Source: Bacteroidales bacterium
GTDB lineage: Bacteria > Bacteroidota > Bacteroidia > Bacteroidales > UBA932
Length of the DNA stretch: 64,000 nt
Assembly (NCBI GenBank): GCA_017935505.1
Contig: JAGBHM010000013.1
Span: 27,594-91,593, forward strand
Direction of reading: 5' to 3'
The notes below the pieces were generated by a model. That model saw nothing but the letters and a program-made list of their open reading frames with translations. It did not search any database and had not been told where the DNA came from. Position 1 is the stretch's first letter. The number at the start of each line of letters is the position of its first letter. Both the position numbers and the translations under genes were made by a program. Shown piece by piece: positions 3,451-22,241 of this stretch.

Positions 3451-3485
3451 GATCTTGATTTTAAATAGTTTACAAATCTTTAGAC

Positions 3486-4202: not shown

Positions 4203-4875
4203 TTTCTGTTGCTTGCGGTTGTGCGACAGGAGCTTCTGGCTCAATTTCAGTTATACTCTCAATTATAACAGGAGTGTTTGGAAGATCTCTCTTGACAGCA
4301 CCTGTAGGTACTGAAGCAATCTTGTCTATAATGTCAAGACCCTCGATAGTCTCGCCAAATACAGTGTATGCGCCGTCCAACTGGGCACATGCCTTCTCAT
4401 CCTGTACAATATAGAATTGTGATCCGGATGACTCCCTGTTAGGATTTGCAGCATCTCCTTTGCGGGCAGCAGCCAATGCACCTTTCTTGTGTTTGAGTTC
4501 AGGACGGAACTCTGCAGGAACATTGTAGCCAGGACCACCTGTGCCATATTTTGCAACAGCATTCGGATCTTTTGAAAGAGGATCACCTGTCTGGATCATA
4601 AATCCGTTGATAACTCTGTGGAACTGTATTCCATCATAAAATTTCTGGGTTGCAAGTTTAAAGAAATTGTCTCTGTGGAGAGGGGTCTCTTTGTACAATT
4701 TCACCTTGATTGTACCGAGATTGGTTTTGATTTCAAAAACTGGTTCTTCTGATTTCATCTTTACAACATTTTCTTCTTTAGGTTGTTCTTCTTTTACAGC
4801 CGGCTTGTCGGAATTTCCGTTCTTACAAGCAAAAAGCACAGTGGCGCACAATGCGAACAAGGCAATTTTTTTCAT
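4192..4875 (-). CDS. Cyclophilin-type peptidyl-prolyl isomerase lipoprotein
   Basis: A 227-residue protein with a lipoprotein signal peptide (ALCATVLFACKNG, lipobox cysteine about residue 17), a charged Lys/Glu linker, and a cyclophilin domain from about residue 47. Family motifs are present: FHRVINGFMIQTGDP carries the catalytic arginine and the FMIQ active-site run, SGSQFYIV the substrate pocket, and YTVFGETIEGLDIID the end of the fold. It is expected to isomerise X-Pro bonds of envelope proteins in the periplasm. The C-terminal tail is Pro/Gln/Glu-rich and disordered-looking. First gene of a minus-strand run with the HAD hydrolase and the nitroreductase, divergent from the patatin gene. 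Confidence 0.93.
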   Translation of the reverse strand: MKKIALFALCATVLFACKNGNSDKPAVKEEQPKEENVVKMKSEEPVFEIKTNLGTIKVKLYKETPLHRDNFFKLATQKFYDGIQFHRVINGFMIQTGDPLSKDPNAVAKYGTGGPGYNVPAEFRPELKHKKGALAAARKGDAANPNRESSGSQFYIVQDEKACAQLDGAYTVFGETIEGLDIIDKIASVPTGAVKRDLPNTPVIIESITEIEPEAPVAQPQATENAQ

Positions 4876-4915
4876 AATGATATCTGTTAAAAATTAGTTT
4901 CCGGTAGCGGTATCG

Positions 4916-4923
4916 CAAATTTA
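4916..4923 (-). promoter_or_regulatory. Possible -7 element of the cyclophilin gene
   Basis: TAAATTTG on the minus strand fits TAnnTTTG and sits about 41 bases before the start codon. No clear -33 element was found. Confidence 0.4.
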
Positions 4924-4962
4924 ATGATTAATTCTTTTTTATCGATATAAAATAATGATGTT

Positions 4963-7317: not shown

Positions 7318-7321
7318 ACTG

Positions 7322-8851: not shown

Positions 8852-8861
8852 AATAAACGAA

Positions 8862-9302
8862 ATGGGAACAAAGGTTAAGATAGTGAACAAATCGGCATAT
8901 CCGGTGCCGGCATATGCTACGGAGCTCTCCGCAGGAATGGACCTGAAGGCAAATATTACAGAACCGGTAACAATAGCCTCTCTCGAAAGGGCTATGATCC
9001 CTACCGGCATTTATATCGAATTGCCTGAAGGATATGAGGCTCAGATTCGTCCACGCAGCGGCCTTGCTGCAAAATTCGGTGTTACGGTGGCCAATGCCCC
9101 CGGAACAGTTGATGCAGATTACAGAGGGGAGGTCAAGGTTATATTGGTAAATCTCTCAAAAGAGCCTTTCGTAATCAATCCGGGCGAGCGTATTGCCCAG
9201 ATGGTGATTGCAAAGTATGAGAAGATTGAGTGGGAAGAGGTTGAGGAGCTTGGTGATACAGAGCGTGGCGACGGTGGATTTGGTTCAACAGGAAGAAAAT
9301 GA
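8862..9302 (+). CDS. dut: Deoxyuridine 5'-triphosphate nucleotidohydrolase (dUTPase)
   Basis: A 146-residue trimeric-type dUTPase with all five motifs in order: [33 protein letters not shown] (catalytic Asp and Tyr), GERIAQMVI, and the glycine-rich C-terminal arm [11 protein letters not shown] that closes over the active site. It converts dUTP to dUMP and pyrophosphate, keeping uracil out of DNA and feeding thymidylate synthesis. The stop overlaps the next gene by 4 bases (ATGA), indicating translational coupling in the long plus-strand operon. Confidence 0.97.
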
Positions 9303-10186
9303 TAATTATGCAGGAGAATCTGTCGATATCGGTAAATGGAAATTGCATCAGATGCGGAAGATGTGTAAAGGTTTGTCCGTCGGGCATATTTGAGATGGCT
9401 GGATATGGTGTGGATAAATCTGTTAAAATAGTTGATCTTCAGAAATGTATAGCATGCGGACATTGTTCGGCAGCCTGCCCTGTGGGAGCTGTTGACCATA
9501 CTCTTTTCCCTACAGAAAAAATACATCGGATCGATTACTCAAATATGCCTTCATCGGAGCAGGTGATGCTGCTGTGCAAGGCCAGACGTACCAACAGGGC
9601 ATTCTCAAAAGAGCCGGTTGCCAAAGAGCATGTCGATATGATTCTGGAGGCGGCACACAGGGCTCCTACGGCAAGCAATATGCAGAATGTTGAGTTTGTT
9701 GTTGTAAGCTCTCCTGAGAAGTTGAGGGAGATCCAGAAATTTGTTATAGAGGTATTTGGCTCACTGGTTAAAAAACTGGAGAATCCGCTGTTGAAGCCTC
9801 TGTTGAAGAGGATTGTAGGGCCTGTATACAGATATGTGCCAATATTTGAAAAGATGAAGGCCGATTATGCAAATGGCAACGACAGAATATTGCGTGGAGC
9901 CACTTGCGTAATTTTTATACATACTCCAAAGAGCTCCCGCTTTGGTGATGCAGATGCTAATCTTGCCTATGAAAACGGTTCACTTATGGCCGAAAGTCTC
10001 GGAATAAGCCAGCTTTATACAGGATTTGTATGTACTGCAATAAAGCAGCGTAAGGGTGTGCTTGAGAAGATGCTTGGGCTCTCACCGGACAGGGAGATAA
10101 AAGCTGGAATGGGACTTGGCATGCCTGAGTTCAGATATCCTAATTATATCGATAAAAAAGAACTGCAATTTACAGAAGTCAGATGA
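9299..10186 (+). CDS. Nitroreductase with N-terminal 2[4Fe-4S] ferredoxin domain
   Basis: 295 residues. Residues about 15-60 carry two ferredoxin cysteine sets, [12 protein letters not shown] and [12 protein letters not shown], enough for two [4Fe-4S] clusters. From about residue 90 a nitroreductase-fold FMN domain follows ([15 protein letters not shown], then [19 protein letters not shown]). The ferredoxin part probably supplies electrons to the FMN. The substrate is unknown; such fusions are common in anaerobes. The start overlaps dut by 4 bases and the stop overlaps murF by 4 bases. A second Met at residue 4 is an equally plausible start. Confidence 0.9.
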
Positions 10187-11556
10187 AAAATATAGAGACA
10201 GCCGATTTATATGAATTATTCAAGGCCTGCGGCTCTTCGGTATGTACCGACAGCCGGAGTGTGAAAGAGGGTGATATGTTTTTTGCCTTGAAGGGTGAGA
10301 ATTTTGACGGCAATAATTATGCTTGTGCAGCAATTGGAAAAGGGGCGGCATATGCTGTGGTGGACGATGCCGGCATATATGAGGCAAATCCGGATCTGCA
10401 ACAGAGGCTCGTTCTTGTAGAGAATGTGCTTGAGGCATTGCAGCAGTTGTCGAAATATAACAGATTGAGGTACAAGATCCCCGTAATTGCACTTACCGGA
10501 ACAAACGGCAAGACTACAACAAAAGAGCTCATTGCAGCTACACTCTCTGTGAAGTATAATGTGGTCTCTACCGCAGGCAATCTCAATAACCATATAGGAG
10601 TTCCGCTTACATTATTGAGAATCAATGAAGAGACTCAGGCTGCCGTGATAGAGATGGGCGCAAGCGCTCCTGGTGAGATAGAGACACTCGTGAATCTTGT
10701 CTGCCCAAGTTTTGGTCTTATAACAAATGTGGGAAAGGCCCATCTGCTGGGATTTGGTTCTTTTGAAGGGGTGAAAAAGACAAAAGGTGAGCTTTACGAT
10801 AATTTGGCACGGCATAAGAAGATAGCATTTGTGAATGTGGACAATCCGCATCTGATGGAGATGGCGCAGCAGTATGATTCTCTGCATATAGTGCCATATG
10901 GCCTGAAAAACAATTGTGTGGAGATTCTTGAAAATGAACCGGATAATCCGTTTCTCAGACTCGTCATGCCTAATCCTTGCCTTACAAGCGAGCCTGCAAG
11001 AATAGAGGTGAGGACAAATCTCATAGGAAAATATAATGCAGACAATGTCCTGGCAGCGTTATGCATATCATCATATTTTGATGTGGCAACGGAGGATGCT
11101 GTTGCTGCCATTGCGGCTTATGTGCCTTCCAACAACCGCTCCCAGATGACAAAGACTGAGAATAACACCCTTATAATTGATGCCTATAATGCCAACCCGA
11201 CAAGCATGAGGGCTTCGCTCGAAAACTTTGTTGCACTGAATCTCCAGAATAAGGTACTTGTTCTGGGTGATATGCGTGAATTGGGTGATGATTCTTTGAA
11301 GGAGCATTGTGATATTGTTGAGTATCTGCAGCATACAGGCGTGGAGAGAGCATTCCTTGTGGGTGGGGAGTTTTGTAGGGCTGTTGAGGCTGTTTCGCAG
11401 AAGAGCTCCGGCAAAGCATCTACCCTGCCACTGACTCTTTTTGCTGACTCGCAGCTTCTTAAGGAATATCTCAGTAAAGAACCTCTGAGGAACAAGACTA
11501 TATTGATAAAGGGCTCGAGGGGTATAAGACTCGAGAGAATATTTGAAGCACTCTAA
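10183..11556 (+). CDS. murF: UDP-N-acetylmuramoyl-tripeptide--D-alanyl-D-alanine ligase
   Basis: A 457-residue Mur ligase. The N-terminal domain has SVCTDSRSVKEGDMFFAL, the MurE/MurF UDP-substrate fold. The ATP loop is ALTGTNGKTTTKELI; AVIEMGASAPGEIETL and LITNVGKAHLLGFGS are central-domain motifs; IIDAYNANPTSMRASL and LVLGDMRELG are C-terminal signatures specific to MurF. It joins D-Ala-D-Ala to the UDP-MurNAc-tripeptide in the cytoplasm, the last soluble step of peptidoglycan precursor synthesis. Coupled to the preceding nitroreductase by a 4-base overlap. Confidence 0.96.
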   Translation: MKNIETADLYELFKACGSSVCTDSRSVKEGDMFFALKGENFDGNNYACAAIGKGAAYAVVDDAGIYEANPDLQQRLVLVENVLEALQQLSKYNRLRYKIPVIALTGTNGKTTTKELIAATLSVKYNVVSTAGNLNNHIGVPLTLLRINEETQAAVIEMGASAPGEIETLVNLVCPSFGLITNVGKAHLLGFGSFEGVKKTKGELYDNLARHKKIAFVNVDNPHLMEMAQQYDSLHIVPYGLKNNCVEILENEPDNPFLRLVMPNPCLTSEPARIEVRTNLIGKYNADNVLAALCISSYFDVATEDAVAAIAAYVPSNNRSQMTKTENNTLIIDAYNANPTSMRASLENFVALNLQNKVLVLGDMRELGDDSLKEHCDIVEYLQHTGVERAFLVGGEFCRAVEAVSQKSSGKASTLPLTLFADSQLLKEYLSKEPLRNKTILIKGSRGIRLERIFEAL

Positions 11557-11587
11557 AAGATTTAACTATTTAATAACCTATATGACT

Positions 11588-13120
11588 ATGAAAAAACTAT
11601 TATTTTGCCAGGCAAAATTATTGTCGGTATTATTTGTGGCAGTGCTTATGTCTGCCTGTGACAATGCTCCTAAATACAACAAATCAATTCCGGCAGGATT
11701 TGATGCATTGTGCCAAAGAGCTATAGATGAGTGGAAAGTTCCCGGAATGGCGGTTGCCGTTGTAAAAGATGGTGAGGTTGTATTTATGAAGGGTTACGGA
11801 AATGCCCGTCTTGGCGACTCTTTGAATGCACCTGTACCTGTAACACCTCAAACCCAATTTGTAATTGCTTCAACATCAAAGGCATTTACCTCGGGCTTGC
11901 TTGCAAATGTTATGGATGAGTATCCTGAAATCAAATGGGATGCTCCTGTGAAAAAGTATCTTCCCGATTTCAAGATGTATGATCCTTGGGTTACCGAGAA
12001 TTTCCAGGTAAGGGAGATAATGTCGCATCACAGCGGTTTCAATGCATATGCCCTGGATGATCTTCCAACTTGGGGTTATGACCGTGACGACCTCTACAGA
12101 ATCTACTCTGTATTGCAGCCTACATACAGTTTCCGCACAAAATATGCCTACAACAACAGCATGTATACCATCTCTGCAAAAATTATTGAGAAATATACAG
12201 GCAAAAGCTGGGATGAGGCAATTGCAGAGCGCATTTTTACACCGCTTGAGATGAAGAACAGTACAACCGGAAATGTGTCGTTCTATACCGCTGAGAATCT
12301 TGCTCAGGGTTACAGAATGAGAAAGGCTAAGGATAAAAATGAGATAGAGGTTGTACCGCGTACAGACAAGGATGATGCATTTGCATGGCTCTCAGCTGTA
12401 GCACCTGCAGGATTTGTAATCTCAACTGTTGAGGATATGGCAAATTGGGTGAAGATGCATCTCAACCATGGAACTTTCAATGGCAAACAGATAATCTCAC
12501 GCGAGAACCACGATATGCTCTTCTATCCTCAGACAATTACAGGCAGTGACTCTACACGCCTGACCAACTATGCACAAGGCTGGACAGTTGAGTATGGCCT
12601 CCAGGGACGCTATATCAGACACACCGGTCTTGCATACGGTTATACAGCACTCGTGGGACTTCATCCTGAGCTTAACCTCGGTTTCGTATTTCTTACAAAT
12701 AACGGAAGCTCTTCAGACCCACAATCTGCTATCGGACGTGATTTGATTGAGCTCTATAAAGGCAATGCTCCACACCATTTTGATGAGTATCTTGCAGATT
12801 ATCTGGAGGATCTGTTCAGCGAGGAGAAAGACGAGAAAAAACCGGAAGAGACTCCTGTGGCAGCTTTGGCAAATAAAGCTTATGTGGGCAACTACACCCT
12901 CGAACCATTTGGTACCGCAAAGGTGTATGAGAAGGATGGCAGCCTCTACTTTAATTTGCGCAAGGTAGATGCTCAACTTGATCACAAGAATGGAAATGTG
13001 TTCAAATTCTATCAGCCTGGTTCCGGCACATTTGATCTCACTTTTACTGTGAAGGGTGGTAGAGCGCAATCTCTTACCTTTAATATAAATGACCCTGTAG
13101 GTGAGTTTGTAAGGAGATAG
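11588..13120 (+). CDS. Serine beta-lactamase/penicillin-binding-protein-like lipoprotein hydrolase
   Basis: About 510 residues. A lipoprotein signal (VLFVAVLMSACDNA) leads into a class C beta-lactamase fold: SxxK motif STSK (Ser about 95, Lys about 98), YxN motif YNN in KYAYNNSMYT, and HTG in the third-motif position (IRHTGLAYGYTALVG). A Glu/Lys-rich linker is followed by a C-terminal beta domain from about residue 420 (AYVGNYTLEPFGTAKVY), the DUF3471-type module found on many such hydrolases. It probably acts in the periplasm as an esterase, peptidase or D-amino-peptide hydrolase; antibiotic resistance cannot be assumed. ATG at 11588 was chosen because upstream in-frame ATGs give poor signal peptides or overlap murF; ATG at 11582 is an alternative. 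The LytTR gene begins 6 bases after its stop. Confidence 0.88.
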   Translation: MKKLLFCQAKLLSVLFVAVLMSACDNAPKYNKSIPAGFDALCQRAIDEWKVPGMAVAVVKDGEVVFMKGYGNARLGDSLNAPVPVTPQTQFVIASTSKAFTSGLLANVMDEYPEIKWDAPVKKYLPDFKMYDPWVTENFQVREIMSHHSGFNAYALDDLPTWGYDRDDLYRIYSVLQPTYSFRTKYAYNNSMYTISAKIIEKYTGKSWDEAIAERIFTPLEMKNSTTGNVSFYTAENLAQGYRMRKAKDKNEIEVVPRTDKDDAFAWLSAVAPAGFVISTVEDMANWVKMHLNHGTFNGKQIISRENHDMLFYPQTITGSDSTRLTNYAQGWTVEYGLQGRYIRHTGLAYGYTALVGLHPELNLGFVFLTNNGSSSDPQSAIGRDLIELYKGNAPHHFDEYLADYLEDLFSEEKDEKKPEETPVAALANKAYVGNYTLEPFGTAKVYEKDGSLYFNLRKVDAQLDHKNGNVFKFYQPGSGTFDLTFTVKGGRAQSLTFNINDPVGEFVRR

Positions 13121-13126
13121 CAGACC

Positions 13127-13498
13127 ATGAAAAACATTTATCTGCACCTTAATACAAGGGATGAGTTCCTCAGAATGGATATCAGCAAGATTGTCTATTT
13201 TGAGGCCGACGGCAATTATACCAATATTGTGCTTGCAAACAAACTTAAAAGCGTTGTCTGCATGAATCTGGCCCATATGCAGCAGATTCTCACTGACAGC
13301 CTTAAGGAGAATGCCAGAACATTTGTGAGAGTCGGTAAGAAATATATCATCAACCATGCATATGTTTGTCAGATAAATGTGTTGAGACAGAATCTTGTTT
13401 TGAGCGACGGCGCCAGCTTTACATTTCAGCTCGATATATCAAAAGAGGCTCTCAAGGGGTTGAGGGAGCTCTATCTGGCACCGTCGGGAAAAGAGTAA
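13127..13498 (+). CDS. LytTR-type DNA-binding protein, stand-alone
   Basis: A 123-residue protein made up almost entirely of a LytTR domain: ISKIVYFEADGNYTNIVL near the N terminus, then FVRVGKKYIINHAYVCQI, both characteristic of LytTR DNA-binding folds. There is no receiver domain, membrane segment or other sensor, so any input must come from another protein. It lies 6 bases after the beta-lactamase-like gene and 11 bases before the FHA-like gene, so it is probably in one transcript with the signalling block and may regulate it. LytTR proteins bind repeated promoter sites; I did not find a convincing repeated pair nearby. Confidence 0.88.
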   Translation: MKNIYLHLNTRDEFLRMDISKIVYFEADGNYTNIVLANKLKSVVCMNLAHMQQILTDSLKENARTFVRVGKKYIINHAYVCQINVLRQNLVLSDGASFTFQLDISKEALKGLRELYLAPSGKE

Positions 13499-13509
13499 AT
13501 ATTTGAAAT

Positions 13510-14280
13510 ATGCAAAGATTAAAGGAGAAAACGATTCTTATAGGCAAGGAGCCTTCTCAAGGACGCCTTCTTATTGCAATGAAGTTAAATGGGCAGTATA
13601 AGGTTGCAGCACTCGGTGCAGCAGGAAGCGTACCCAATTCGGTAAGCCGCTGCAATCCTGCGGAGGAAATTGCCCATTGCAAGATTGTGACAGATGCCAA
13701 CGGCTCAATGACAATCACCAATCTCAAGCCTCAAAATATGACATATGTGAATGGTTCTGAGATTCTTGCCAAGAAAATAACAATGGAGAGCAGTGTGGCT
13801 CTGGGCAAAGATATGTTCCAGATTGATCTGGCAGCAGTAATGGATGCTGCGCTCAAGCTTGTGAGTTCTGTTCCGCCGCCGCCTGTGTCGATAAAGCATC
13901 TGGAGGCAGTGTGGAGTGAATATGAAAGTACAAATGAGGCCATAGCACAACGCCAGCAGGAGAAGGGTCGCAGAAGGATGCTTCCAATGATCATAGGTTC
14001 TGTTTCGGGATTGGTGGCACCTCTTCTGGCAGCAGTTTCGAGCAGCAGTACCCTTTTTGTAACTGCACCGATATCAATAATATCGTTTGTGATATATTTT
14101 AAAATATACAATGAAAAGGATACAACTCTCGAAGAGCGCAAGGCTGCCCAGGATGCATTGATCGACAATTATGTATGTCCTCATGAGCATTGCAGGCACT
14201 ATGTGGGGCAACAGCCTTATAAAGTGTTGAGGCAGAACAAAAAATGTCCATATTGCGGTGGCGGATGGATTGAAAAATGA
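13510..14280 (+). CDS. Degenerate FHA-like protein with membrane hairpin and C-terminal zinc ribbon
   Basis: 256 residues, not a clear member of a named family. Residues about 1-115 read like a divergent FHA beta sandwich (KTILIGKEPSQGRLLIAM, then HCKIVTDANGSMTITNL and TYVNGSEI), but the canonical GR and SxxH phosphothreonine-binding residues are not obvious. Residues about 155-200 form two adjacent hydrophobic helices (MIIGSVSGLVAPLLAAV, then a second ending in FVIYFKIYN). The C terminus has CPHEHC and CPYCGGG, a four-cysteine zinc ribbon. The likely topology has both ends in the cytoplasm with a membrane hairpin. It sits between the LytTR gene and the first kinase and may be a phosphoprotein adaptor; that role is inferred. 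Confidence 0.65.
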   Translation: MQRLKEKTILIGKEPSQGRLLIAMKLNGQYKVAALGAAGSVPNSVSRCNPAEEIAHCKIVTDANGSMTITNLKPQNMTYVNGSEILAKKITMESSVALGKDMFQIDLAAVMDAALKLVSSVPPPPVSIKHLEAVWSEYESTNEAIAQRQQEKGRRRMLPMIIGSVSGLVAPLLAAVSSSSTLFVTAPISIISFVIYFKIYNEKDTTLEERKAAQDALIDNYVCPHEHCRHYVGQQPYKVLRQNKKCPYCGGGWIEK

Positions 14281-14308
14281 TGATTTGTGATTAATAGAAT
14301 TTGATATT

Positions 14309-16063
14309 ATGCAACTAACGCAGAATTCACTTCTTCAGAACGGGAAATACCGTATAGAGAAGGTGCTCGGCCAAGGAGGTTTTGGTATCACCTATCTGGG
14401 TGAGCAGGTTGCCCTGGGCCGCAAGGTGGCCATAAAGGAGTTCTTTATGAAGGAGTATTGCAACCGCAATACGGCAACTTCACATGTATCTGTCGGTTCT
14501 CAAGGCAGTAAGGATACAGTAGACAGATTCCGACTCAAGTTTATAAAGGAGGCGCAGCTGATAGCCGGTCTCAACCATCCTAATATTATCAGAATCCATG
14601 ATATTTTTGAAGAGAATGGCACAGCATATTATGTGATGGAATATCAGGAGGGTGGTTCTCTCTCTGAATACCTTAAAATGCGTGGAGTATTGGGAGAAGA
14701 GGAGGCTCTCTATTTTATACGGCAAATAGCAGGGGCTCTTGAATATATTCATGAGAAGAAGATCAATCATCTCGATGTGAAACCTGGAAACATATTGCTC
14801 AATGAGACCAATGATGCGGTTCTGATTGATTTCGGCCTTTCAAAACGGTATGACGATGAGGGCAATCAGACCAGCACAACCCCTGTGGGTATAAGTCACG
14901 GTTATGCGCCTCTGGAGCAGTACAAGAGGGGCGGAGTTGGTATCTTTTCTCCAGCAACAGACATTTACTCACTTGGAGCCACTCTGTATAAACTTCTCAC
15001 CGGCAATACGCCGCCGGAGGCCAATGATGTGATGGAGGATGGACTGCCTGCGATGCCTTCGAATATTTCGGGAAAGATCCGTAATGCAATAGTGAGTGCA
15101 ATGACTCCGGCGCGCAGCAAACGTCCTCAGAGCATTGATGAGTTCCTGCAGATGCTCGGCGAGGCAGAGGGGAAAAAGAACCAGAAGTCAAAGGCTAAAA
15201 AAACAGAGAAAAAGCCCAATGTAGAGGATGAAGAGACATCTTTTACCGATACTGTTTCTGATAAAAAGAAGATAACTGATGAAAAGAAGAAACAGGAGAT
15301 TAAAGATGATGATTCTCAAGAACTTCCGGTATACAAGCGCAGGCATTGGATTGTGAATTTAGGATATATCTGCTACATGTTATGGATTGTATTCTGGTCT
15401 TTTGTCTTGCCATTGTGTGTACGGGGTGATGATTTTGATTGGGGTGCTATTTCTATTCTTTGTGCCACTTTTTGTCTGGATTCTGTGATACGTATGTGGA
15501 GAAATCAGAGGAATGCTTGGTATTTGCTGTTTATAGGAACTCTGGCTATGTGTGCGTTAGGATTCTATTATGATTGTACAGGTCATTCTGACGATCTTTT
15601 TCTTGCAGGTATGGCATTGCTTTTTACCTATGCAGTATTTTTTGTTGTTCTGCTTATTTTCAAAAAGAATGGGAAGTCTGCTTTCAAGCTGTTGAAAGAG
15701 GGTGAGTCTGTAAGCATCTTTAGTGAATTGGCAGTTCTAAAACAACGCCATTGGGTAGTAAATGTTACAACTGGTGTCATCATTTTTGGAGCTGTGTTAT
15801 GTGGCTTTTCATTTTCTTATTATACATTGTGGCCATCGGTTATAGGTTTGATATACAGTCTTTATCTTGGATTGAGGAATTGCAAAGAGAGTATAGTTAT
15901 AGCCATTATTTTTATATTTGGTGGTTTGTTTGTTGATATTGTGAATGGAGATATGGAATGGAATTATCCATTTTGGATACTTGTAATTCTTTGCTATATG
16001 CTTCAGTTTGCAGTGCTGTTCATCCGTAAAAACGGCAAGTCGGCGTTGTCATTGATGAGGTAA
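14309..16063 (+). CDS. Membrane-bound Ser/Thr protein kinase with duplicated C-terminal membrane domain
   Basis: 584 residues. The kinase domain occupies about 1-290: glycine loop VLGQGGFGITYLG, ATP-binding lysine in VAIKEF (Lys about 43), catalytic loop HLDVKPGN (Asp about 156), DFG in LIDFGLSKRY (Asp about 174), and YAPLEQY in place of APE. The residue before the catalytic Asp is Leu, so this is a non-RD kinase. A Lys/Glu/Asp-rich cytoplasmic linker covers about 290-340. The rest is two tandem copies of a roughly 110-residue membrane unit, each starting RHW(I/V)VN and ending KNGKSA, with about four hydrophobic helices each. No extracytoplasmic sensor domain is visible. It is expected to phosphorylate Ser/Thr on proteins encoded nearby, opposed by the PP2C at 19611. 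The gene starts 28 bases after the FHA-like gene. Confidence 0.93.
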   Translation: MQLTQNSLLQNGKYRIEKVLGQGGFGITYLGEQVALGRKVAIKEFFMKEYCNRNTATSHVSVGSQGSKDTVDRFRLKFIKEAQLIAGLNHPNIIRIHDIFEENGTAYYVMEYQEGGSLSEYLKMRGVLGEEEALYFIRQIAGALEYIHEKKINHLDVKPGNILLNETNDAVLIDFGLSKRYDDEGNQTSTTPVGISHGYAPLEQYKRGGVGIFSPATDIYSLGATLYKLLTGNTPPEANDVMEDGLPAMPSNISGKIRNAIVSAMTPARSKRPQSIDEFLQMLGEAEGKKNQKSKAKKTEKKPNVEDEETSFTDTVSDKKKITDEKKKQEIKDDDSQELPVYKRRHWIVNLGYICYMLWIVFWSFVLPLCVRGDDFDWGAISILCATFCLDSVIRMWRNQRNAWYLLFIGTLAMCALGFYYDCTGHSDDLFLAGMALLFTYAVFFVVLLIFKKNGKSAFKLLKEGESVSIFSELAVLKQRHWVVNVTTGVIIFGAVLCGFSFSYYTLWPSVIGLIYSLYLGLRNCKESIVIAIIFIFGGLFVDIVNGDMEWNYPFWILVILCYMLQFAVLFIRKNGKSALSLMR

Positions 16064-16117
16064 ATTCTGCATTTTGTGTATTAATCCCGCCATTTCATAC
16101 AGAATGGGATGAAATGC

Positions 16118-16148
16118 TTGCAGCGGAGAATTGAGGTGCATACATTTG
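16118..16148 (+). promoter_or_regulatory. Promoter for the second half of the signalling block
   Basis: TTG (16118-16120), a 20-base spacer and TACATTTG (16141-16148) fit the Bacteroidota -33/-7 pattern. Transcription would start near 16155, about 25 bases before the gene at 16181. An 8-bp inverted repeat, CATTTCAT (16091-16098) with ATGAAATG (16109-16116), lies just upstream and could be an operator or end the kinase transcript. Confidence 0.6.
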
Positions 16149-16180
16149 CAGAAGAATAACACCTGAAAAACGTTAAGGAT

Positions 16181-17026
16181 ATGAAAAAAGAGACAAAATC
16201 TAAGATAAAATCTGATTTGGCAACAAGTGCCGGATCTTCGGTTGGTGCAACTATTGGTGTTATGACCGGTAATATTCTGGCTGCAGATGAACCTGAAAAA
16301 GCTGAAGCTGGTCATCCGGAATTGACAGATGAGCCTGAGCCGGCAGAGGCCTCTGAGCATATAGAGCATCAGGTGTCTGCTTCTCAGCCGCAATATAACC
16401 GTAATGCCGGCCCCACAGCGCAAGCCGCACAAACATCACAGCAGACACAAAGATCACAAACTGTGCAGAGTCCGCAATCATCCCAGACTTCTCAATCAGA
16501 AGATGCAGGACCAGTGGAGAAGCCTCAGCCTGCAAGAGAATCTGAGACTGTAGAGCATTCTCAAGTTTCAGAGCAGTCCAACACTTCAGGGCAGCAACAG
16601 GAGACATCAAGACCGGAGCAGAGTGTGCAAAATGGGCAGTCGGAGCAGGCAAGAGGTGATGGACAGGTTCATAATGCTGTGCTGCATGAAGAAGTTACAG
16701 AAGAGGAGAGTGAAATAGTTGTGGTAGGCAGGGGCATTATTGAAAATGAAGCAGGGGAACAGATGGATGTGGCTGTTTTGCAGATGGATAACGAAATGGC
16801 AATGCTTGTTGATGGAGATATAGATGGTATTGCAGATGTATTGATAGTGGACGAAAACGGAAATGAGAGGATTGATGAAGGGGAGATGATAAGCCTGGAT
16901 AACGGAGAGATCCGGATGGATGCGTTCCAGGTGGATCCTGTCGCAGTAAATACAAATGATACATTGGCCTGCAATAATGAAGAGGATTATGTAAATGATG
17001 CCAATGTAGAAGATTATATTGCTTAA
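16181..17026 (+). CDS. Exported or membrane-anchored acidic protein with one calcium-loop module (unknown function)
   Basis: 281 residues, not matched to a named family. A basic N terminus (MKKETKSKIKSDLATSAG) leads to a glycine-rich hydrophobic stretch ending GNILAADEP, which could be a signal peptide or a single membrane anchor. Residues about 40-170 are low-complexity Gln/Ser/Thr/Glu, apparently disordered. From about 177 there is a compact module: IVVVGRGIIENE, then LVDGDIDGIADVLIVDENG, then IDEGEM, whose Asp spacing resembles EF-hand or dockerin calcium loops. The same module occurs twice in the next protein. The gene follows its own likely promoter and precedes its paralogue by 18 bases. 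It may be a surface or periplasmic ligand of the kinase system; this is a guess from position. Confidence 0.7.
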   Translation: MKKETKSKIKSDLATSAGSSVGATIGVMTGNILAADEPEKAEAGHPELTDEPEPAEASEHIEHQVSASQPQYNRNAGPTAQAAQTSQQTQRSQTVQSPQSSQTSQSEDAGPVEKPQPARESETVEHSQVSEQSNTSGQQQETSRPEQSVQNGQSEQARGDGQVHNAVLHEEVTEEESEIVVVGRGIIENEAGEQMDVAVLQMDNEMAMLVDGDIDGIADVLIVDENGNERIDEGEMISLDNGEIRMDAFQVDPVAVNTNDTLACNNEEDYVNDANVEDYIA

Positions 17027-17044
17027 CAATTAAAACTTACAGAT

Positions 17045-18265
17045 ATGAAAAACGAGGAAACTGCTTACAGCGAGAAAACACAATACGAAGAATCACAGGT
17101 TAATGTACAGCCTGAAAAAGAAAATGTAGAGAACAAATCTGCAGAAAAGGAAAATTCGGAAAAAGAGAACTCAGGGAAGGAGCCTCTATGGAAAAAGGCA
17201 GCCTCTGGAATGGGTATGGGCATATTGTTGGGCAGCATATCATCTTTTGCAACAACAAAAGCGTTTGCCGGAGAAGAGAATGAGGCGGTAGAAGAAGAAA
17301 CAGTATCAGAAGAGCAGCCTGCATGGTCCGACGGAGATGTGGATATTGCATCCGGAGTTACTGATGATATGTCATTCTCACAAGCTTTCAGTGCTGCCCG
17401 TGCCGAAGTTGGTAGCGGAGGATGTTTCGAGTGGAGAGGAAATGTCTACTCTACATTCACAGCTGAGGAGTGGAACAGCATGTCTGCCGAGGAGAAGGCT
17501 GAGTATAATGACCATTTCAGCTGGGGTGGCAGCGGCGCATCAGAAAATAATGAGACTGCTGCAGAAAATTCTGCTGCAAATGAGACTGTGGCAAATGATG
17601 CGACATCGCAGAGCAATGGCGGTCAGGCCGCTGGAACTAGAACTGCAGAATCTCAGGCATCTGAGTCTCAAACATCAGACAACCACACCTCAAATAATCA
17701 GGCTTCAGGAAATAATATTGCTGAAAATCAAAATGGAGAGGAGGGGGATGTTGAAGTGGTTGATGTTTGGCATTTTAATGATATTGGCGGAAACGGTGCA
17801 CATGTAAAGATAGATGGCGAGGATTATCTACTTGTCGATTATGATGGGGATGGTAAATTTGATGTAGCAGCTGCAGATTTTAATGGTGATGGTCATTTTT
17901 CAGATGATGAAAGCGCGGATATCTCGGATCTGGATTTGAAAGTCAGTGATTTGACAGATGAGCCGATTCGTGAAGAGCAGGAGGCAGAAGATGTTGTAAT
18001 ACTTGGTGTAACGCATGTTGAAGAAACTGGAGGAAACGCTGCCGGACTTATTGTTGACAACAATATGGTAGTATTGGTGGATGTGGATGGTAATGACGAT
18101 AAATTTGATTTCATGGTGTCGGATAGCAATGGTGATGGAACTATCTCAGAAAATGAAATAAATGAAATGACAAATGTTTCCAACATGGATTTGAAAGTGA
18201 GCGATTTTGAGGAGGCATCGGATCTGTATGCAGATAATGGAGGTGATTATATAAGTGAAAACTAG
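17045..18265 (+). CDS. Exported or anchored acidic protein with two calcium-loop modules (unknown function)
   Basis: 406 residues. The very acidic, Ser/Thr-containing N terminus (about 1-55) would be cytoplasmic if the following hydrophobic segment (GMGMGILLGSISSFATTKAFA) is an anchor; the AFA-G junction also resembles a signal-peptidase site. Residues about 110-165 form a small domain rich in conserved-looking aromatics (SFSQAFSAARAEVG, then FEWRGNVYSTF and EEWNSMSAEEK). A low-complexity Asn/Ser/Glu/Ala linker follows. Two copies of a roughly 75-residue module (about 233-310 and 316-392) each contain paired Asp loops: LVDYDGDGKFDV with DFNGDGHFSDDE, and LVDVDGNDDKFDF with DSNGDGTISENE, each followed by DLKVSD. 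The stop lies 7 bases before the caspase start. Calcium binding is inferred from loop spacing. Confidence 0.72.
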   Translation: MKNEETAYSEKTQYEESQVNVQPEKENVENKSAEKENSEKENSGKEPLWKKAASGMGMGILLGSISSFATTKAFAGEENEAVEEETVSEEQPAWSDGDVDIASGVTDDMSFSQAFSAARAEVGSGGCFEWRGNVYSTFTAEEWNSMSAEEKAEYNDHFSWGGSGASENNETAAENSAANETVANDATSQSNGGQAAGTRTAESQASESQTSDNHTSNNQASGNNIAENQNGEEGDVEVVDVWHFNDIGGNGAHVKIDGEDYLLVDYDGDGKFDVAAADFNGDGHFSDDESADISDLDLKVSDLTDEPIREEQEAEDVVILGVTHVEETGGNAAGLIVDNNMVVLVDVDGNDDKFDFMVSDSNGDGTISENEINEMTNVSNMDLKVSDFEEASDLYADNGGDYISEN

Positions 18266-18272
18266 AATAATT

Positions 18273-19010
18273 ATGATGCAGTTTAAAAGAGTGTTGCTGC
18301 TTGTGGCCATATGTGTAATGCTGCCGTTTTTTGCCAATGCCAAGGTCTTTCTGGTATCGGTTGGCATATCGGACTATCCCGGAAAGGTGAATGATCTCGG
18401 ACTCCCTGCAAAAGATGCTCAGTTGGTTACATGGCTCTATGGCCAAAATGCAGATGTTAAGTTTATGGAGCTGCTCGATACAAATGCAACAAGAGCAAAT
18501 ATTATTGAGGCTATGGAGAAGATATTTCCAAAAGCGGGCAAGGATGATGTTGTTGTATTGTACTTCAGCGGGCATGGAGTCCCCGGCAGTTTCTGTGCAT
18601 ATGATGAAGATCTCAGTTATGAAGAGGTGAGAAGATGTATGTCGGAGAGCAAATCGCATAATAAAATGATCTTTGCGGACGCATGTTTTTCTGGCAAGAT
18701 ACGCACAAATGAGACCGCATCGGAGCAGGAGCATAGCCGTTCTTATGAGAAGACAAATGTAATGCTCTTCCTCTCATCCAGAAGCAATGAAACCTCTTTG
18801 GAGATGCCATACATGAAGAATGGACTGTTCACCACATATCTTCAGAAAGGACTTGGAGGCAGAGCCGATTTCAATAATGACAGAATAATTACGGCAAAGG
18901 AGATTTTCCGTTATGTATATGATAATGTTGTGAGGATGTCGCAAAAAAAACAACATCCAGTAATGTGGGGAAAATTTTCGGATGATATGCCAGTAATAAG
19001 CTGGAAATAA
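18273..19010 (+). CDS. Caspase-family (C14) cysteine protease with signal peptide
   Basis: About 245 residues. The N terminus (MMQFKRVLLLVAICVMLPFFANA) is a clear signal peptide, so the mature protein should be periplasmic or on the surface. The caspase fold begins at VFLVSVGISDYPG. The catalytic histidine is in VLYFSGHG (His about 101) and the cysteine in IFADACFSG (Cys about 138), the standard His-Cys dyad of clan CD. SSRSNETSLE and GLFTTYLQKGLGG are further family features, and DFNNDRIITAKEIF resembles an Asp-rich calcium loop. Metacaspase-like enzymes of this fold often need calcium and cut after Arg/Lys. ATG at 18273 (or 18276) was chosen over 18255, which overlaps the upstream gene and spoils the signal peptide. 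The substrate is unknown; the calcium-loop proteins upstream are obvious candidates. Confidence 0.9.
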   Translation: MMQFKRVLLLVAICVMLPFFANAKVFLVSVGISDYPGKVNDLGLPAKDAQLVTWLYGQNADVKFMELLDTNATRANIIEAMEKIFPKAGKDDVVVLYFSGHGVPGSFCAYDEDLSYEEVRRCMSESKSHNKMIFADACFSGKIRTNETASEQEHSRSYEKTNVMLFLSSRSNETSLEMPYMKNGLFTTYLQKGLGGRADFNNDRIITAKEIFRYVYDNVVRMSQKKQHPVMWGKFSDDMPVISWK

Positions 19011-19020
19011 TATAGTTAAA

Positions 19021-19593
19021 ATGGAAAACAGTGTAATTAAAATAAAATGCCCATGCTGTGGCGCAGTGCTGGCCGTAAAGATGCAGCCCGGAAGTGAAAG
19101 CAAGAATCTCACATGTCCTGTATGTAAAGAGAGCTCACCGTTCAAACTATATAAACAGGTATCGGGCAATGCTCAGAAAGAACATACCGAGTATCCTGGA
19201 ATGGACAAAGGGGGTAATACAAAGGCTAAAGGCATGCAGAATTGTTCGGCAGGCAGGTTGAAGGTCCAGAGCGTTTCTGTGCCGTTTGATTTAAAGCCTG
19301 GCGTGAATATTATAGGAAGGAAAGCGTCGGTCTCTTCGGCAAATATCCAGATTCCTGTAATAACAAGCAACCGTATGAGCCGTGAGCATCTGGTAATTGA
19401 GGTGAAGAATGTGCCAGGAAAGGGCACTGTCCATTATGCCTCGTTGTACAAAGAGAAGGTTAATGACACCTTTATAAATAAGGAGCGTCTGGAGTATGGT
19501 GATTGCATTATTTTGAAAGATGGTGATATACTGGAGCTTCCGGATGCTTCGATAAAATTTGAGATTCCCGATAGTGAAGAGACTTCACTTTAA
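19021..19593 (+). CDS. Zinc-ribbon/FHA domain protein
   Basis: 190 residues, cytoplasmic. The N terminus is a zinc ribbon (KCPCCGAVLAVKM, then CPVCKESSPFK), followed by a linker and a forkhead-associated domain from about residue 78. The FHA core is canonical: IIGRK for the GR motif, NRMSREHLVIEV for SxxH, INKERLEYGDCIIL and LKDGDILELP for the distal strands. FHA domains bind phosphothreonine peptides, so this protein is the most likely reader of the two kinases. It lies 10 bases after the caspase and 17 before the phosphatase. A second protein at 13510 joins an FHA-like part and a zinc ribbon in the opposite order. Confidence 0.88.
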   Translation: MENSVIKIKCPCCGAVLAVKMQPGSESKNLTCPVCKESSPFKLYKQVSGNAQKEHTEYPGMDKGGNTKAKGMQNCSAGRLKVQSVSVPFDLKPGVNIIGRKASVSSANIQIPVITSNRMSREHLVIEVKNVPGKGTVHYASLYKEKVNDTFINKERLEYGDCIILKDGDILELPDASIKFEIPDSEETSL

Positions 19594-19610
19594 AGACAAA
19601 ATTTTCTGTT

Positions 19611-20624
19611 ATGAAATACAGATTGGAGGCATACAATATCTGGCAATTGGGCCAGAGAAGCAATCAGGAGGATTCGATTTTTCCTGAATATGGCAAAGTT
19701 TCGGCAACAGACCGTCTCTTTATTCTTTGTGACGGAATGGGTGGCCACTCATCCGGAGAGGTTGCAAGCCAGACTGTCTGCAGTGCCATGAGCGACTCTG
19801 TTTTCAGACACTCTCCTGATGCTGAAGGGCCGTTTACCGCAGCAGATTTTGAGACAGTGCTCAGTGAAACATATAATGTCTTGGATACCAAAGATGATGG
19901 CGCAGGCAAAAAAATGGGCACTACACTCACATTCTTGAAATTCCATGCAGGCGGCACTCTTATTGCCCATATCGGCGACAGCCGAGTATACCATATCCGT
20001 CCGGGCAAAACAGCGGAAGAGACCAGAATACTTTTTCAGACAGAAGACCACTCACTTGTAAATGATTTGATAAAGGTGGGTGAACTTACCCCTGAAGAGG
20101 CAAAATATTCAACACAAAAGAATGTGATTACCAGGGCTATGCAGCCAAATATGGAGAGGCGTTCCAAAGCTGATATCCACAATATAGAAGATATAAGGCC
20201 CGGTGACTATTTTATGATGTGTTCCGACGGTATCCTTGAACAGCTGGAGGATGAGAATATTGAATATATCTTCTCAGACAAGGCCGGCAACGCCAAAAAG
20301 AAGGTTGAGATGCTCGAAAAGGTTACAGAGCATAACCGCGACAATCATTCGGCTATATTGGTACATGTAACGGAAGTGCTGCCTTCTGTTGCAGAATTGA
20401 AACAAATCTCTGTAGCATCTCCAGAAAAAGTGGAGAGGGCTGCTGCTGCAACTGCATCCGGAAAGACAGAAGCCAAAGCTCCCCGCCGTCATCAACTGTC
20501 GGTAACAAATCTGTTGCTGATTCTGTCGGTTATATTGCTGGCAATAAGCGGATATATAATTTACAGGCACAATTCTGGAAAAGGTCTGCCGAAAATTGAA
20601 ATTGGAAGGCAGATTGCAGATTAA
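19611..20624 (+). CDS. PP2C-family Ser/Thr protein phosphatase with C-terminal membrane anchor
   Basis: 337 residues. The PP2C catalytic domain (about 1-250) carries GQRSNQEDSIF, FILCDGMGGHSSGEVAS, GTTLTFLKF, AHIGDSRVYHIR and MMCSDGILE, giving the metal-binding aspartates of motifs 1, 2, 8 and 11. A charged linker is followed by one transmembrane helix (LLLILSVILLAISGYIIY, about 300-318) and a short tail, so the enzyme is tethered to the inner membrane facing the cytoplasm. It is expected to reverse the phosphorylation made by the kinases at 14309 and 20625. The stop abuts the ATG of the second kinase with no gap, indicating tight co-expression. Confidence 0.95.
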   Translation: MKYRLEAYNIWQLGQRSNQEDSIFPEYGKVSATDRLFILCDGMGGHSSGEVASQTVCSAMSDSVFRHSPDAEGPFTAADFETVLSETYNVLDTKDDGAGKKMGTTLTFLKFHAGGTLIAHIGDSRVYHIRPGKTAEETRILFQTEDHSLVNDLIKVGELTPEEAKYSTQKNVITRAMQPNMERRSKADIHNIEDIRPGDYFMMCSDGILEQLEDENIEYIFSDKAGNAKKKVEMLEKVTEHNRDNHSAILVHVTEVLPSVAELKQISVASPEKVERAAAATASGKTEAKAPRRHQLSVTNLLLILSVILLAISGYIIYRHNSGKGLPKIEIGRQIAD

Positions 20625-22241
20625 ATGATATTTGAAATGAATATTCAGGATACTTTACAGGAAGGCACAATTTTAAATGGTCGTGTATACAGTTATAAAA
20701 TAGAGAAGATTCTTGGACAGGGCTCTTTTGGTGTCACATATTTGGCCTCTGCCGATATTGAGGTGTCGGGCCCGCTTGGAAAGATAAATTCCACAATACA
20801 AGTTGCCATAAAGGAGTTCTTCATGAAAGAGCTGAACGGAAGAGATGGCTCAACTGTAACATGTAGTACCAAAGGTGGCCTGTATGAGTATTACAAAGGC
20901 AAATTTGCGCGTGAGGCAGAGAATTTGGGCAGCTTGAAACACCCTAATATTGTTAAGGTATTGGAGTGGTTTGAGGCAAACAATACCTATTATTATGCTA
21001 TGGAGTATTGTGAGGCCGGCTCTCTTGATTCTCTCATACAGCAGGGCTGCGGATTGTCTCAGAAGGAGAGTCTTGAGTATATTATGCAGATTGGAGATGC
21101 TCTGCAATATATGCACGACAACAAGATGCTTCATCTTGATATGAAGCCCTCAAATGTCATGCTGCGCAAAAAAGGGGAGGCAGTTCTGATAGATTTCGGT
21201 TTGTCCAAACAGTATACAGAAGATGGAGCTCCTGAATCAAGCACAACCATAGGTGGCGGCACTCCTGGATATGCACCGGTTGAACAGGCAAACTATCAGG
21301 ATGGCAAAGGTTTTCCTGTAACTATGGATGTGTATGCTCTTGGTGCAACTCTCTATAAAATGCTTACAGGTGTGAGGCCCGAGGTTTCGTCTGTAATATT
21401 GAATGGGGAATTCCCTGAGCAGGAACTGAAAAGTAGAGGTATAGGCGAGGAACTGATTGCAGCCATCAAAAAAGCTATGGCTCCACTGGTAAAGGAGCGC
21501 TACAAATCGGTGAGGGAGTTTATGGAGGCTTTGCCGAAAATTGCTGGAACTTCAGTATCAAATGTCGATGATGAATCTACAACATTTGATGAAGATATTG
21601 CAAAAAAAAGGAGACAGAAAACTGAAGAGGAAAAGCAAAAGGAGAAGAAAGCGGAGAAGCAAGAGGTGAAGAAGGTTGTCAAGATCGAAAAAAGTGGGGG
21701 AAAAAGTTCGAAGATATTGAAACTTGCCCTGATTCTTCCGGCTGTTGCAGTTGTTGTCCTAGGACTGCTCTATTCTATTTTTGTTGCAGAACCTAAAGAC
21801 AGTAAACTCTATTGGGAGGCCTTACACAATGATAACTTTGAATTGATGGAGAGTCTTGCAAACAAGGGATATTCGGATGCCTGCAATTCATTGGGCTGCT
21901 GGTACTACAACGCAACAGGCCCGATAAAAGCTGTAGATATAGACAAGGCAAGGATATGGTTTGAGAAGGGGGCGAAGTTGGGTGATTGCAGCAGTGCCTA
22001 TGATGCTGCCCAAATATATGAGATGATGGCAAGAAGAGCTTCCGCAAACGATTCTACAGGGTTTGGAGGTGCAGAGAATTTGTGGAATCTGGCAGAGGAG
22101 TATTATGAACTGGCACTTAAAAATCTTCAGGAGATGGATAACGGTAAAAAAGCTCCACGCAACAATATCTCCCGTAGCTTTTCACACTATTCCAAAGAGA
22201 AAATAGAGGAAGAACTGGCGGATTGCCGTAAAAGACGCTAA
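20625..22241 (+). CDS. Ser/Thr protein kinase with transmembrane helix and Sel1-like C-terminal repeats
   Basis: 538 residues. The kinase domain spans about 15-305: IEKILGQGSFGVTYLA, VAIKEFF (Lys about 63), HLDMKPSN (Asp about 172), LIDFGLSKQY (DFG Asp about 190) and GYAPVEQ. As in the first kinase, Leu precedes the catalytic Asp (non-RD). A Lys/Glu-rich linker, one transmembrane helix (LALILPAVAVVVLGLLYSIFVA, about 367-388), then an extracytoplasmic region with Sel1/TPR-like helices (NKGYSDACNSLGCWYYN, then KARIWFEKGAKLGDCSSA). Sel1 repeats usually bind proteins, so this part may be the sensor. The start codon directly follows the PP2C stop. Sequence is clearly different from the first kinase, so this is an old paralogue. 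Confidence 0.94.
   Translation: MIFEMNIQDTLQEGTILNGRVYSYKIEKILGQGSFGVTYLASADIEVSGPLGKINSTIQVAIKEFFMKELNGRDGSTVTCSTKGGLYEYYKGKFAREAENLGSLKHPNIVKVLEWFEANNTYYYAMEYCEAGSLDSLIQQGCGLSQKESLEYIMQIGDALQYMHDNKMLHLDMKPSNVMLRKKGEAVLIDFGLSKQYTEDGAPESSTTIGGGTPGYAPVEQANYQDGKGFPVTMDVYALGATLYKMLTGVRPEVSSVILNGEFPEQELKSRGIGEELIAAIKKAMAPLVKERYKSVREFMEALPKIAGTSVSNVDDESTTFDEDIAKKRRQKTEEEKQKEKKAEKQEVKKVVKIEKSGGKSSKILKLALILPAVAVVVLGLLYSIFVAEPKDSKLYWEALHNDNFELMESLANKGYSDACNSLGCWYYNATGPIKAVDIDKARIWFEKGAKLGDCSSAYDAAQIYEMMARRASANDSTGFGGAENLWNLAEEYYELALKNLQEMDNGKKAPRNNISRSFSHYSKEKIEEELADCRKRR

What the first reader, a model, noticed from the sequence alone, without database searches (positions are those of the whole stretch)
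13510..22241. Eukaryotic-like phospho-signalling block with a caspase-like protease
Seven genes on one strand encode two Ser/Thr kinases, a PP2C phosphatase, two FHA/zinc-ribbon type proteins, an exported caspase-like protease and two exported calcium-loop proteins (eight with the FHA-like gene at 13510). Gaps are 0 to 28 bases except one internal promoter. Writers, eraser and reader are all present, together with a protease. Such sets suggest a regulated proteolytic or cell-death/defence pathway, but no toxin, nuclease or mobile element is nearby, so an envelope-stress or developmental role is equally possible. I know of no named system with this exact gene list.
Basis: partly seen in the sequence, partly recalled or inferred. 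Interest (0 to 1): 0.85.

Follow-up and report, generated by a model that had tools for sequence, protein, structure and literature searches.

The report
Membrane kinase circuit with caspase-like protease
Nine neighbouring genes that recur largely as a set in many Bacteroidota encode membrane kinases, a phosphatase, phospho-reader proteins, a DNA-binding regulator and a caspase-like protease with a signal-peptide-like start, and they likely form one self-contained circuit that would sense the cell envelope and switch on protein cutting there.

Summary
The block is real, not a chance arrangement, and one gene longer than reported: a LytTR DNA-binding protein (13127-13498) belongs to it. In 80 loci found through the caspase, zinc-ribbon/FHA is present in 77, PP2C in 72, calcium-loop "acid2" in 70, membrane FHA in 64, kinases in 62, LytTR in 57; 611 of 620 genes share one strand. 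Anchored on acid2 instead, zinc-ribbon/FHA is found in 9 of 10 genomes but the caspase in 6 of 10: frequent, not obligatory. Two findings suggest wiring. A threonine motif, [DE]xTx-hydrophobic, is about tenfold enriched in acid2's predicted cytosolic tail, and enriched in kinase and zinc-ribbon/FHA linkers; its serine version is not. A tandem repeat with 21-bp spacing sits 70 bp before the -7 box of the acidic-protein genes; the window's copy is the only convincing one in the genome. The membrane FHA gene was not found in 38 of 39 genomes of the genus; five show the empty site. Function (envelope surveillance with regulated proteolysis) is inferred. It fails tested features of KKP and of type VI regulation; EACC1-caspase membership is unlikely but not fully tested.

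The parts
13127..13498 (+). LytTR DNA-binding protein, 123 aa, no other Pfam domain found (L)
   Evidence: PF04397 1.6e-9; directly before the membrane FHA gene in 55 of 56 loci with both
13510..14280 (+). Membrane FHA protein: FHA domain, hydrophobic part, C-terminal cysteine ribbon (F)
   Evidence: FHA 19.7 bits; 42-sequence alignment A3; present in 64 of 80 loci
14309..16063 (+). Ser/Thr kinase STK1 with several C-terminal hydrophobic segments; linker motif EETSF at Thr310
   Evidence: Pkinase 7.4e-43; kinase residues by eye; motif
16069..16107 (+). Tandem direct-repeat operator; half-sites 16071-16080 and 16092-16101, 21 bp apart; predicted LytTR site
   Evidence: PWM 49.3 bits against 7.1 for the next best in the window; only copy with 0 mismatches in the genome
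16141..16148 (+). -7 box TACATTTG of a Bacteroidetes-type promoter (consensus recalled), CTTG at 16117-16120
16181..17026 (+). acid1: acidic protein with Gly-rich N-terminal hydrophobic segment and conserved C-terminal DYxNDAxx end
   Evidence: family in 52 of 80 loci; ends listed
17045..18265 (+). acid2: polar N-tail with EETAY (Thr6) and EKTQY (Thr12), hydrophobic segment, unnamed conserved domain (about 90-160), calcium-loop-like domain (236-303) and a low-confidence repeat of it (319-376)
   Evidence: A4; model pLDDT 84-96 in blocks 91-160 and 231-300, 48-57 in 311-360; 1289 homologues, none of the 120 listed with a Pfam domain (query the relative L033:9061-10014)
18255..19010 (+). Caspase-like (C14) protease with N-terminal hydrophobic signal-like segment; His107, Cys144
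   Evidence: PF00656 5.7e-20; A1 invariant residues in 26 sequences
19021..19593 (+). Soluble zinc-ribbon + FHA protein (Z); EHTEY (Thr56), EETSL (Thr188)
   Evidence: FHA 1.5e-8; A2 invariant G99 R100 S120 R121 H123 N148 in 39 sequences
19611..20624 (+). PP2C phosphatase with C-terminal hydrophobic segment (P)
   Evidence: PP2C_2 1.2e-12, Stp1-type 6.9e-47
20625..22241 (+). Ser/Thr kinase STK2 with hydrophobic segment and C-terminal Sel1 repeat; linker motif ESTTF at Thr319
   Evidence: Pkinase 1.5e-37, Sel1 3.1e-7

Best explanation
The block most likely is a self-contained trans-envelope phospho-threonine circuit: its membrane kinases would phosphorylate a threonine motif that recurs in their own linkers, in the zinc-ribbon/FHA linker and in the predicted cytosolic tail of the calcium-loop protein acid2, the two FHA proteins would dock on it, the PP2C would erase it, and the LytTR protein would raise expression of the acidic proteins and the predicted-exported caspase-like protease from a dedicated tandem operator. 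Shown by sequence: the conserved gene set, intact catalytic motifs, the Thr-specific motif enrichment, and the repeat with fixed spacing and position. Inferred: phosphorylation at these sites, FHA docking, the inside/outside topology of acid2, LytTR binding to the repeat, and any caspase activity. The kinases of related loci carry different C-terminal domains (Lcl_C, Sel1, MORN, FGE-sulfatase, Big_2, WG, FKBP, LRR_5), which I read as interchangeable envelope sensors feeding one hub. The protease, and the exported LRR-type proteins of many related loci, would be the output; the purpose I think likeliest is envelope surveillance with regulated proteolysis.
Against: No biochemical evidence exists. 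The motif was chosen after seeing the tails, sequences share ancestry, and shuffles ignore local composition. A variant with an acidic +3 residue (Tx[YFLIV][DE]) is also in excess in caspases (58/29.6) and membrane FHA (47/20.7) and not in zinc-ribbon/FHA linkers (11/9.1), so the exact code is unsure. acid1 starts show only 13 against 6.3+-2.4; 8 of 20 held-out tails have no motif (one of them cut). In the window the pattern also falls at sites I do not propose (acid2 T376, STK2 T15 and T478, F T8, PP2C T138). The caspase is missing near acid2 in 4 of 10 genomes of the order; none of these four has a match of 130 bits or more anywhere, though three (G183, G204, G329) are cut by contig ends. 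It is missing in 4 of 5 loci of other orders, so it may be a passenger. LytTR was not detected in L126-L130, which have a caspase. The repeat is absent from 16 of 20 held-out loci, 7 of them with LytTR. The weight matrix was trained on promoters it then finds; 5 of 25 LytTR promoters and 12 of 96 shuffled promoters pass the loose score. acid2's hydrophobic segment might be a cleaved signal peptide, which would put the mature protein outside.
Confidence: 0.52

Rival explanations
1. Defence or abortive-infection module: the kinases would sense phage damage and the caspase would kill the cell.
For: Patchy distribution with an empty site in congeners; kinase-kinase-phosphatase modules (KKP) are known anti-phage systems (PMC11341870, passages); kinases hit PADLOC families mad6 and PD-T4-6, and the caspase the PADLOC caspase model at 1.4e-13.
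Against: The PADLOC kinase hits cover the kinase region and adjoining linker, as any such kinase would. The protease has a hydrophobic signal-like start in the window and in 77 of 82 relatives, unlike a cytosolic killer. No defence or mobile enrichment among 123 flanking ORFs; no relative in the phage collection, and none confirmed in IMG/VR. A dedicated repeat and variable kinase C-termini fit envelope sensing better.
Confidence: 0.2
2. Surface-protein maturation system: the caspase-like protease processes the acidic proteins and the exported LRR-type proteins encoded in the same loci, and the phospho-relay only times this.
For: A family of exported proteins (the member tested is LRR_5, 5e-26) occurs in 39 loci and lies between acid1 and acid2 in 28 of the 32 of them that have both; a small exported protein does so in 27 of 28. 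Conserved acidic DYxNDAxx ends in acid1 and acid2.
Against: The window's own block has none of these extras; no cleavage site was identified; the PDB relatives by sequence (GSU0716, legumain) do not fix specificity.
Confidence: 0.22
3. The phospho-signalling core (membrane FHA, acidic protein, zinc-ribbon/FHA, PP2C, kinase) is the functional unit and the caspase is a separate passenger gene.
For: L120-L122 and L115 have the core, L118 most of it, and 4 of 5 loci in other orders the core or part of it, without the caspase in the fetched stretch.
Against: Within caspase-anchored loci the gene is tightly placed (A-C adjacent in 58 of 70, C-Z in 68 of 77) and its ORF overlaps acid2 in the window, which suggests co-expression.
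Confidence: 0.15
4. Chance arrangement of unrelated genes.
For: None found.
Confidence: 0.01

Closest known systems
Threonine phosphorylation pathway of type VI secretion (PpkA kinase, PppA PP2C phosphatase, Fha)
   Same: Membrane kinase, PP2C eraser and FHA reader (gene roles recalled); in Agrobacterium phosphorylated TssL recruits Fha (PMC5995506, passages).
   Different: No type VI sheath gene found in this genome (VipB); here the docked protein would be an unnamed calcium-loop protein, with a LytTR regulator and a caspase-like protease.
KKP kinase-kinase-phosphatase anti-phage module (PMC11341870, passages)
   Same: PP2C and two Ser/Thr kinases in one locus; FHA reading.
   Different: KKP kinases are fused to FHA and to a cold-shock domain and KKP is found widely in prophages; here FHA domains are separate proteins, no cold-shock domain was found, and the flanks are ordinary chromosomal genes.
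Mycobacterial PknB-FhaA-MurJ/CwlM envelope control (PMC6180346, passages)
   Same: Kinase-driven FHA docking that controls envelope proteins.
   Different: No PASTA domain; no peptidoglycan enzyme in the block; protease and LytTR present.
EACC1-caspase membrane conflict system (PMC7159879, passages)
   Same: Bacterial caspase-fold peptidase linked to a membrane-associated partner gene.
   Different: The caspase scores 74 bits against a 140-bit cut-off for the EACC1-associated type; no fused C-terminal effector domain; no EACC1 match among block proteins.

Membership tests
KKP module | One kinase fused to an FHA domain | tested here: not met
   Pfam on both window kinases: no FHA; none among the 25 of 44 families shown for 82 kinases
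KKP module | One kinase fused to a cold-shock domain | tested here: not met
   none in STK1 or STK2
KKP module | PP2C followed by two kinases | tested here: not met
   PP2C is followed by one kinase; the other lies five genes upstream
KKP module | Location in a prophage or mobile element | tested here: not met
   Flanks shared with congeners are MurF, beta-lactamase-type, AraC, TetR, TolC, HlyD, RND; names of MurF, HlyD and RND by eye
Type VI secretion threonine phosphorylation pathway | Type VI sheath genes in the genome | tested here: not met
   VipB PF05943: 0 matches in the own genome, estimated 90.3% complete
EACC1-caspase system | Caspase of the EACC1-associated subfamily (NF047832) | tested here: not met
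   74.1 bits against a cut-off of 140
EACC1-caspase system | EACC1 partner gene beside the caspase | tested here: inconclusive
   No block protein matched a family of that name, but whether the libraries hold an EACC1 model was not checked
PASTA kinase / PknB family | Extracytoplasmic PASTA domains | tested here: not met
   No PASTA match; NCBIfam PknB_PASTA 184 and 158 bits against a cut-off of 450
Peptidase family C14 (caspase-like) | C14 profile and catalytic His-Cys dyad | tested here: met
   PF00656 72.4 bits over 21.4; H107 in SGHG, C144 in DACFSG, invariant in A1
Peptidase family C14 (caspase-like) | Proteolytic activity and P1 specificity | not testable with these tools
   -
LytTR DNA-binding regulators | LytTR domain over the curated cut-off | tested here: met
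   PF04397 38.3 bits over 22.6
LytTR DNA-binding regulators | Binds tandem repeats about two helical turns apart (recalled) | tested here: inconclusive
   A 21-bp tandem repeat is present before the acidic genes; binding itself cannot be tested here
FHA readers | Phospho-Thr pocket residues (GR, SR, H, N; recalled) | tested here: met
   Zinc-ribbon/FHA: G99 R100 S120 R121 H123 N148 invariant in 39 sequences; membrane FHA: S46, H56 invariant, R47 at least 90% in 42

The most novel reading that the evidence does not exclude
A kinase-to-caspase pathway in bacteria that spans the envelope: interchangeable sensor kinases write one threonine code, [DE]-x-pThr-x-hydrophobic, on the cytosolic tail of a calcium-loop membrane protein; two FHA readers and a PP2C set its lifetime; a private LytTR regulator with a 21-bp tandem operator found once in the genome turns the state into production of an exported caspase-like protease. 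It moves as one cassette between Bacteroidota.
Probability: 0.35. Interest if true: 0.88.

Novelty: new variant of a known kind. Interest (0 to 1): 0.74.

Why it matters
Bacterial Ser/Thr kinases, PP2Cs, FHA proteins and caspase-like proteases often lack assigned partners or targets. If the reading is right, this gives them a defined circuit with a predicted phosphosite code, a predicted docking partner and a predicted operator, each testable with one short peptide or DNA fragment. It would also be a bacterial case in which kinase signalling is tied genetically to a caspase-fold protease outside the cytosol. It points to a conserved protein domain (in acid2, about 70 residues) for which no Pfam family was found.

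Tried and rejected

GC content as a sign of transfer: none (block 0.434, other window genes 0.431). Direct repeats of 18 nt or more at the two ends of the block: none found. Sigma-70-type promoter and terminator scan: near chance level (29 against 24.4+-5.2, 7 against 7.6+-2.7). Rfam: only a tRNA elsewhere in the window. The insertion point as a defence hotspot: not supported; G130 has ten ORFs there, among them a relative of the window's 7322-8851 gene, and six other congeners carry the beta-lactamase-type gene in another setting. A viral or phage home: no relative found. Of 36 plasmid records with a match I looked at two: the Runella rosea plasmid carries the set; the Enterobacter one has a distant caspase with an EAD1 neighbour. 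Further copies of the repeat in the own genome: one 3-mismatch match, the same number as the reversed-pattern control. A first, too strict kinase-linker regex found almost nothing and was replaced by the pattern. KKP, type VI, EACC1-caspase and PASTA membership: see membership test.

Caveats on counts: the 80 loci are the best 80 of 191; many are contig-truncated and none was dropped from the counts. The 82 kinases are the 2 of the window and 80 of the 113 of at least 300 aa. The 123 flanking ORFs are part of 184 nearest ones, out of 359, from 68 loci. Sequence sets were thinned for near-duplicates. Pair adjacency uses overlap-resolved best labels.
Full report
Observation. A ninth belongs with them: a 123-residue LytTR DNA-binding protein at 13127-13498. 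The order in the window is LytTR, membrane FHA with cysteine ribbon (F), STK1, acid1, acid2, caspase, zinc-ribbon/FHA (Z), PP2C, STK2, all on the + strand. Catalytic motifs are intact by eye in the translations (kinase VAIK, HLDxKPxN, DFG; PP2C DGMGGH, GDSR) and by alignment for the caspase (H107, C144) and the FHA pocket of Z. The kinase HLD in place of HRD suggests non-RD kinases (recalled class name).

Is the set conserved? A caspase alignment found 191 encoding stretches in the GTDB contigs, of which the best 80 loci were fetched. Profile search of all ORFs in these loci found Z in 77, PP2C in 72, acid2 in 70, F in 64, kinases in 62, LytTR in 57 and acid1 in 52 of 80; 611 of 620 labelled genes lie on the strand of the caspase. 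Z and PP2C are neighbours in 71 of 72 loci that have both, caspase and Z in 68 of 77, acid2 and caspase in 58 of 70, LytTR and F in 55 of 56, PP2C and a kinase in 43 of 60; LytTR, F, acid2, caspase, Z, PP2C and a kinase all occur in 40 of 80, many of the rest being cut by contig ends. The record titles name mostly Bacteroidales from animal guts (Bacteroides, Prevotella, Alistipes, Muribaculaceae, Lentimicrobiaceae and others).

Mobility. F was found in 1 of 39 genomes of the genus, the own one. In five others (L142-L146) the beta-lactamase-type gene and the AraC gene that flank the block in the window lie 1 to 108 bp apart, with MurF before and TetR, TolC, HlyD after, where the window has 9.1 kb. 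Gain in this lineage is the simpler reading. No direct repeat of 18 nt or more joins the two ends, and base composition does not differ.

The threonine motif. The N-terminal tails of acid2 relatives are polar and variable but repeat short stretches such as EETIYD, EDTVYD, EKTQYD. The pattern [DE]xTx[YFLIVM] occurs 106 times in 70 tails against 10.0+-2.9 in 200 shuffles, in 60 of 70 tails. It is also in excess in 82 kinase linkers between the catalytic domain and the hydrophobic segment (79 against 16.2+-3.7) and in 72 Z linkers (83 against 9.3+-2.8). The same pattern with Ser shows no excess in the three (6, 14 and 12 against 5.9, 24.0 and 8.4). The Thr pattern is not in excess in the rest of acid2 (27/65.8), kinase domains (36/56.1), caspases (20/33.2) or F (15/22.6), is slight in PP2C linkers (16/11.7+-3.2) and weak in acid1 starts (13/6.3+-2.4). 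A variant with an acidic +3 residue is less clean: in excess in acid2 tails (60/7.9) and kinase linkers (39/15.1), but also in caspases (58/29.6) and F (47/20.7), and not in Z linkers (11/9.1) (all). In loci not used to find the pattern, 12 of 20 acid2 tails have it (14 motifs against 2.3+-1.4; Ser version 3) and 16 whole Z proteins have 19 against 6.8+-2.4 (Ser 4). FHA domains read phospho-threonine rather than phospho-serine (recalled), so the Thr preference is what an FHA-read code would leave. In the window the proposed sites are acid2 T6 and T12, Z T56 and T188, STK1 T310 and STK2 T319; the pattern also falls at acid2 T376, STK2 T15 and T478, F T8 and PP2C T138. Phosphorylation and binding are not shown.

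The operator. A TAnnTTTG -7 box is found in 37 of 43 acid1, 27 of 46 acid2 and 24 of 40 LytTR upstream regions of 60 bp or more, against 3.0, 2.5 and 4.9 in shuffles. Aligned on that box, acid1 and acid2 promoters share a tandem repeat close to ATTTCRTRYA. Of 71 such promoters 60 score 15 or more of 20; in 58 of these the spacing is 21 bp, and in 54 of the 58 the first half-site starts 70 bp before the -7 box. The loose score alone is not specific (12 of 96 shuffled and 5 of 25 LytTR promoters pass), but a weight matrix from 57 sites finds 83 sites of 20 bits or more in 1.26 Mb of loci, none in five shuffles, 42 of them before acid1 and 30 before acid2. In 20 loci kept out of training, five sites of 17 bits or more appear in four loci (L115, L124, L125, L132), two of the sites directly before acid2 genes; these are 4 of the 11 held-out loci with a LytTR gene and 0 of the 9 without. 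In the window the site is 16069-16107 at 49.3 bits, the next best being 7.1; in the whole genome it is the only exact match, and the one 3-mismatch match equals the control. LytTR proteins bind such tandem repeats two helical turns apart (recalled). The regulator therefore appears private to this block, and the genes behind the repeat include the caspase.

Sensors and outputs. Of 82 kinases scanned, C-terminal parts match Lcl_C in 9, Sel1 in 5, MORN in 5, FGE-sulfatase in 4, Big_2 in 3, WG in 2, FKBP in 2 and LRR_5 in 1, so the parts beyond the membrane vary while the core does not. An exported family whose tested member is LRR_5 (5e-26) occurs in 39 of 80 loci, between acid1 and acid2 in 28 of the 32 with both; a small exported protein occurs in 28, there in 27. 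The window has neither. The caspase has a hydrophobic start in 77 of 82 relatives and SGHG in 80 of 82. The own genome has four kinases; one outside the block, beside a chaperonin (GroEL-type) gene on contig C30, starts almost like STK1, has a weak Lcl_C match and the motif EATVF.

Comparison with known systems. The nearest mechanisms in print that I saw, in passages only, are the type VI threonine phosphorylation pathway, where phosphorylated TssL recruits Fha, and mycobacterial FhaA docking. KKP shares two kinases and a PP2C but has FHA and cold-shock fusions and a prophage home, not met here. The EACC1-caspase system has a caspase subfamily whose cut-off is not reached. Six answered searches of the open-access library aimed at this set listed no paper describing it; PMC8195603 was seen in a listing only; subscription papers and preprints were not searchable.

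Verdict. A conserved, patchily distributed signalling cassette, a new variant of bacterial Ser/Thr kinase-FHA-PP2C systems, with two directly testable predictions (phospho-Thr code, LytTR operator). What it protects or builds remains inference; envelope surveillance with regulated proteolysis is my choice, at about even odds for the wiring and less for the purpose.

Noticed in passing
L156:3332-5044 (-), own genome contig C30: A kinase whose first 70 residues are nearly those of STK1 lies directly beside a GroEL-type gene, has a weak Lcl_C match and the linker motif EATVF; possibly an orphan sensor of the same circuit.
   Followed up: partly
L120-L122 (about 8600-10700): Minimal form without a caspase nearby: LytTR, membrane FHA, a 79-123 residue acidic ORF with MxEExYTFV, zinc-ribbon/FHA, PP2C, kinase.
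   Followed up: partly
L149 (Runella rosea plasmid, 1486-6775): The same gene kinds in a row on a plasmid of a freshwater isolate, beside genes annotated VWA, OmpA, WG-repeat and T9SS sorting.
   Followed up: no
L090, L093, L097, L103, L107: A five-locus subgroup shares a 418-429 aa exported protein directly after PP2C (no Pfam match in the one tested), a 153-187 aa ORF after the kinase, and a DNA-ligase-type gene upstream on the other strand.
   Followed up: partly
L135 (G130), 3052-13506: Between the beta-lactamase-type and AraC genes this congener carries ten ORFs, among them a relative of the window's 7322-8851 gene; a local rearrangement, not a defence island by eye.
   Followed up: no
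window 18255-18273: The caspase ORF starts with a GTG that overlaps the end of acid2; the hydrophobic start fits better from the in-frame Met at about 18273.
   Followed up: no
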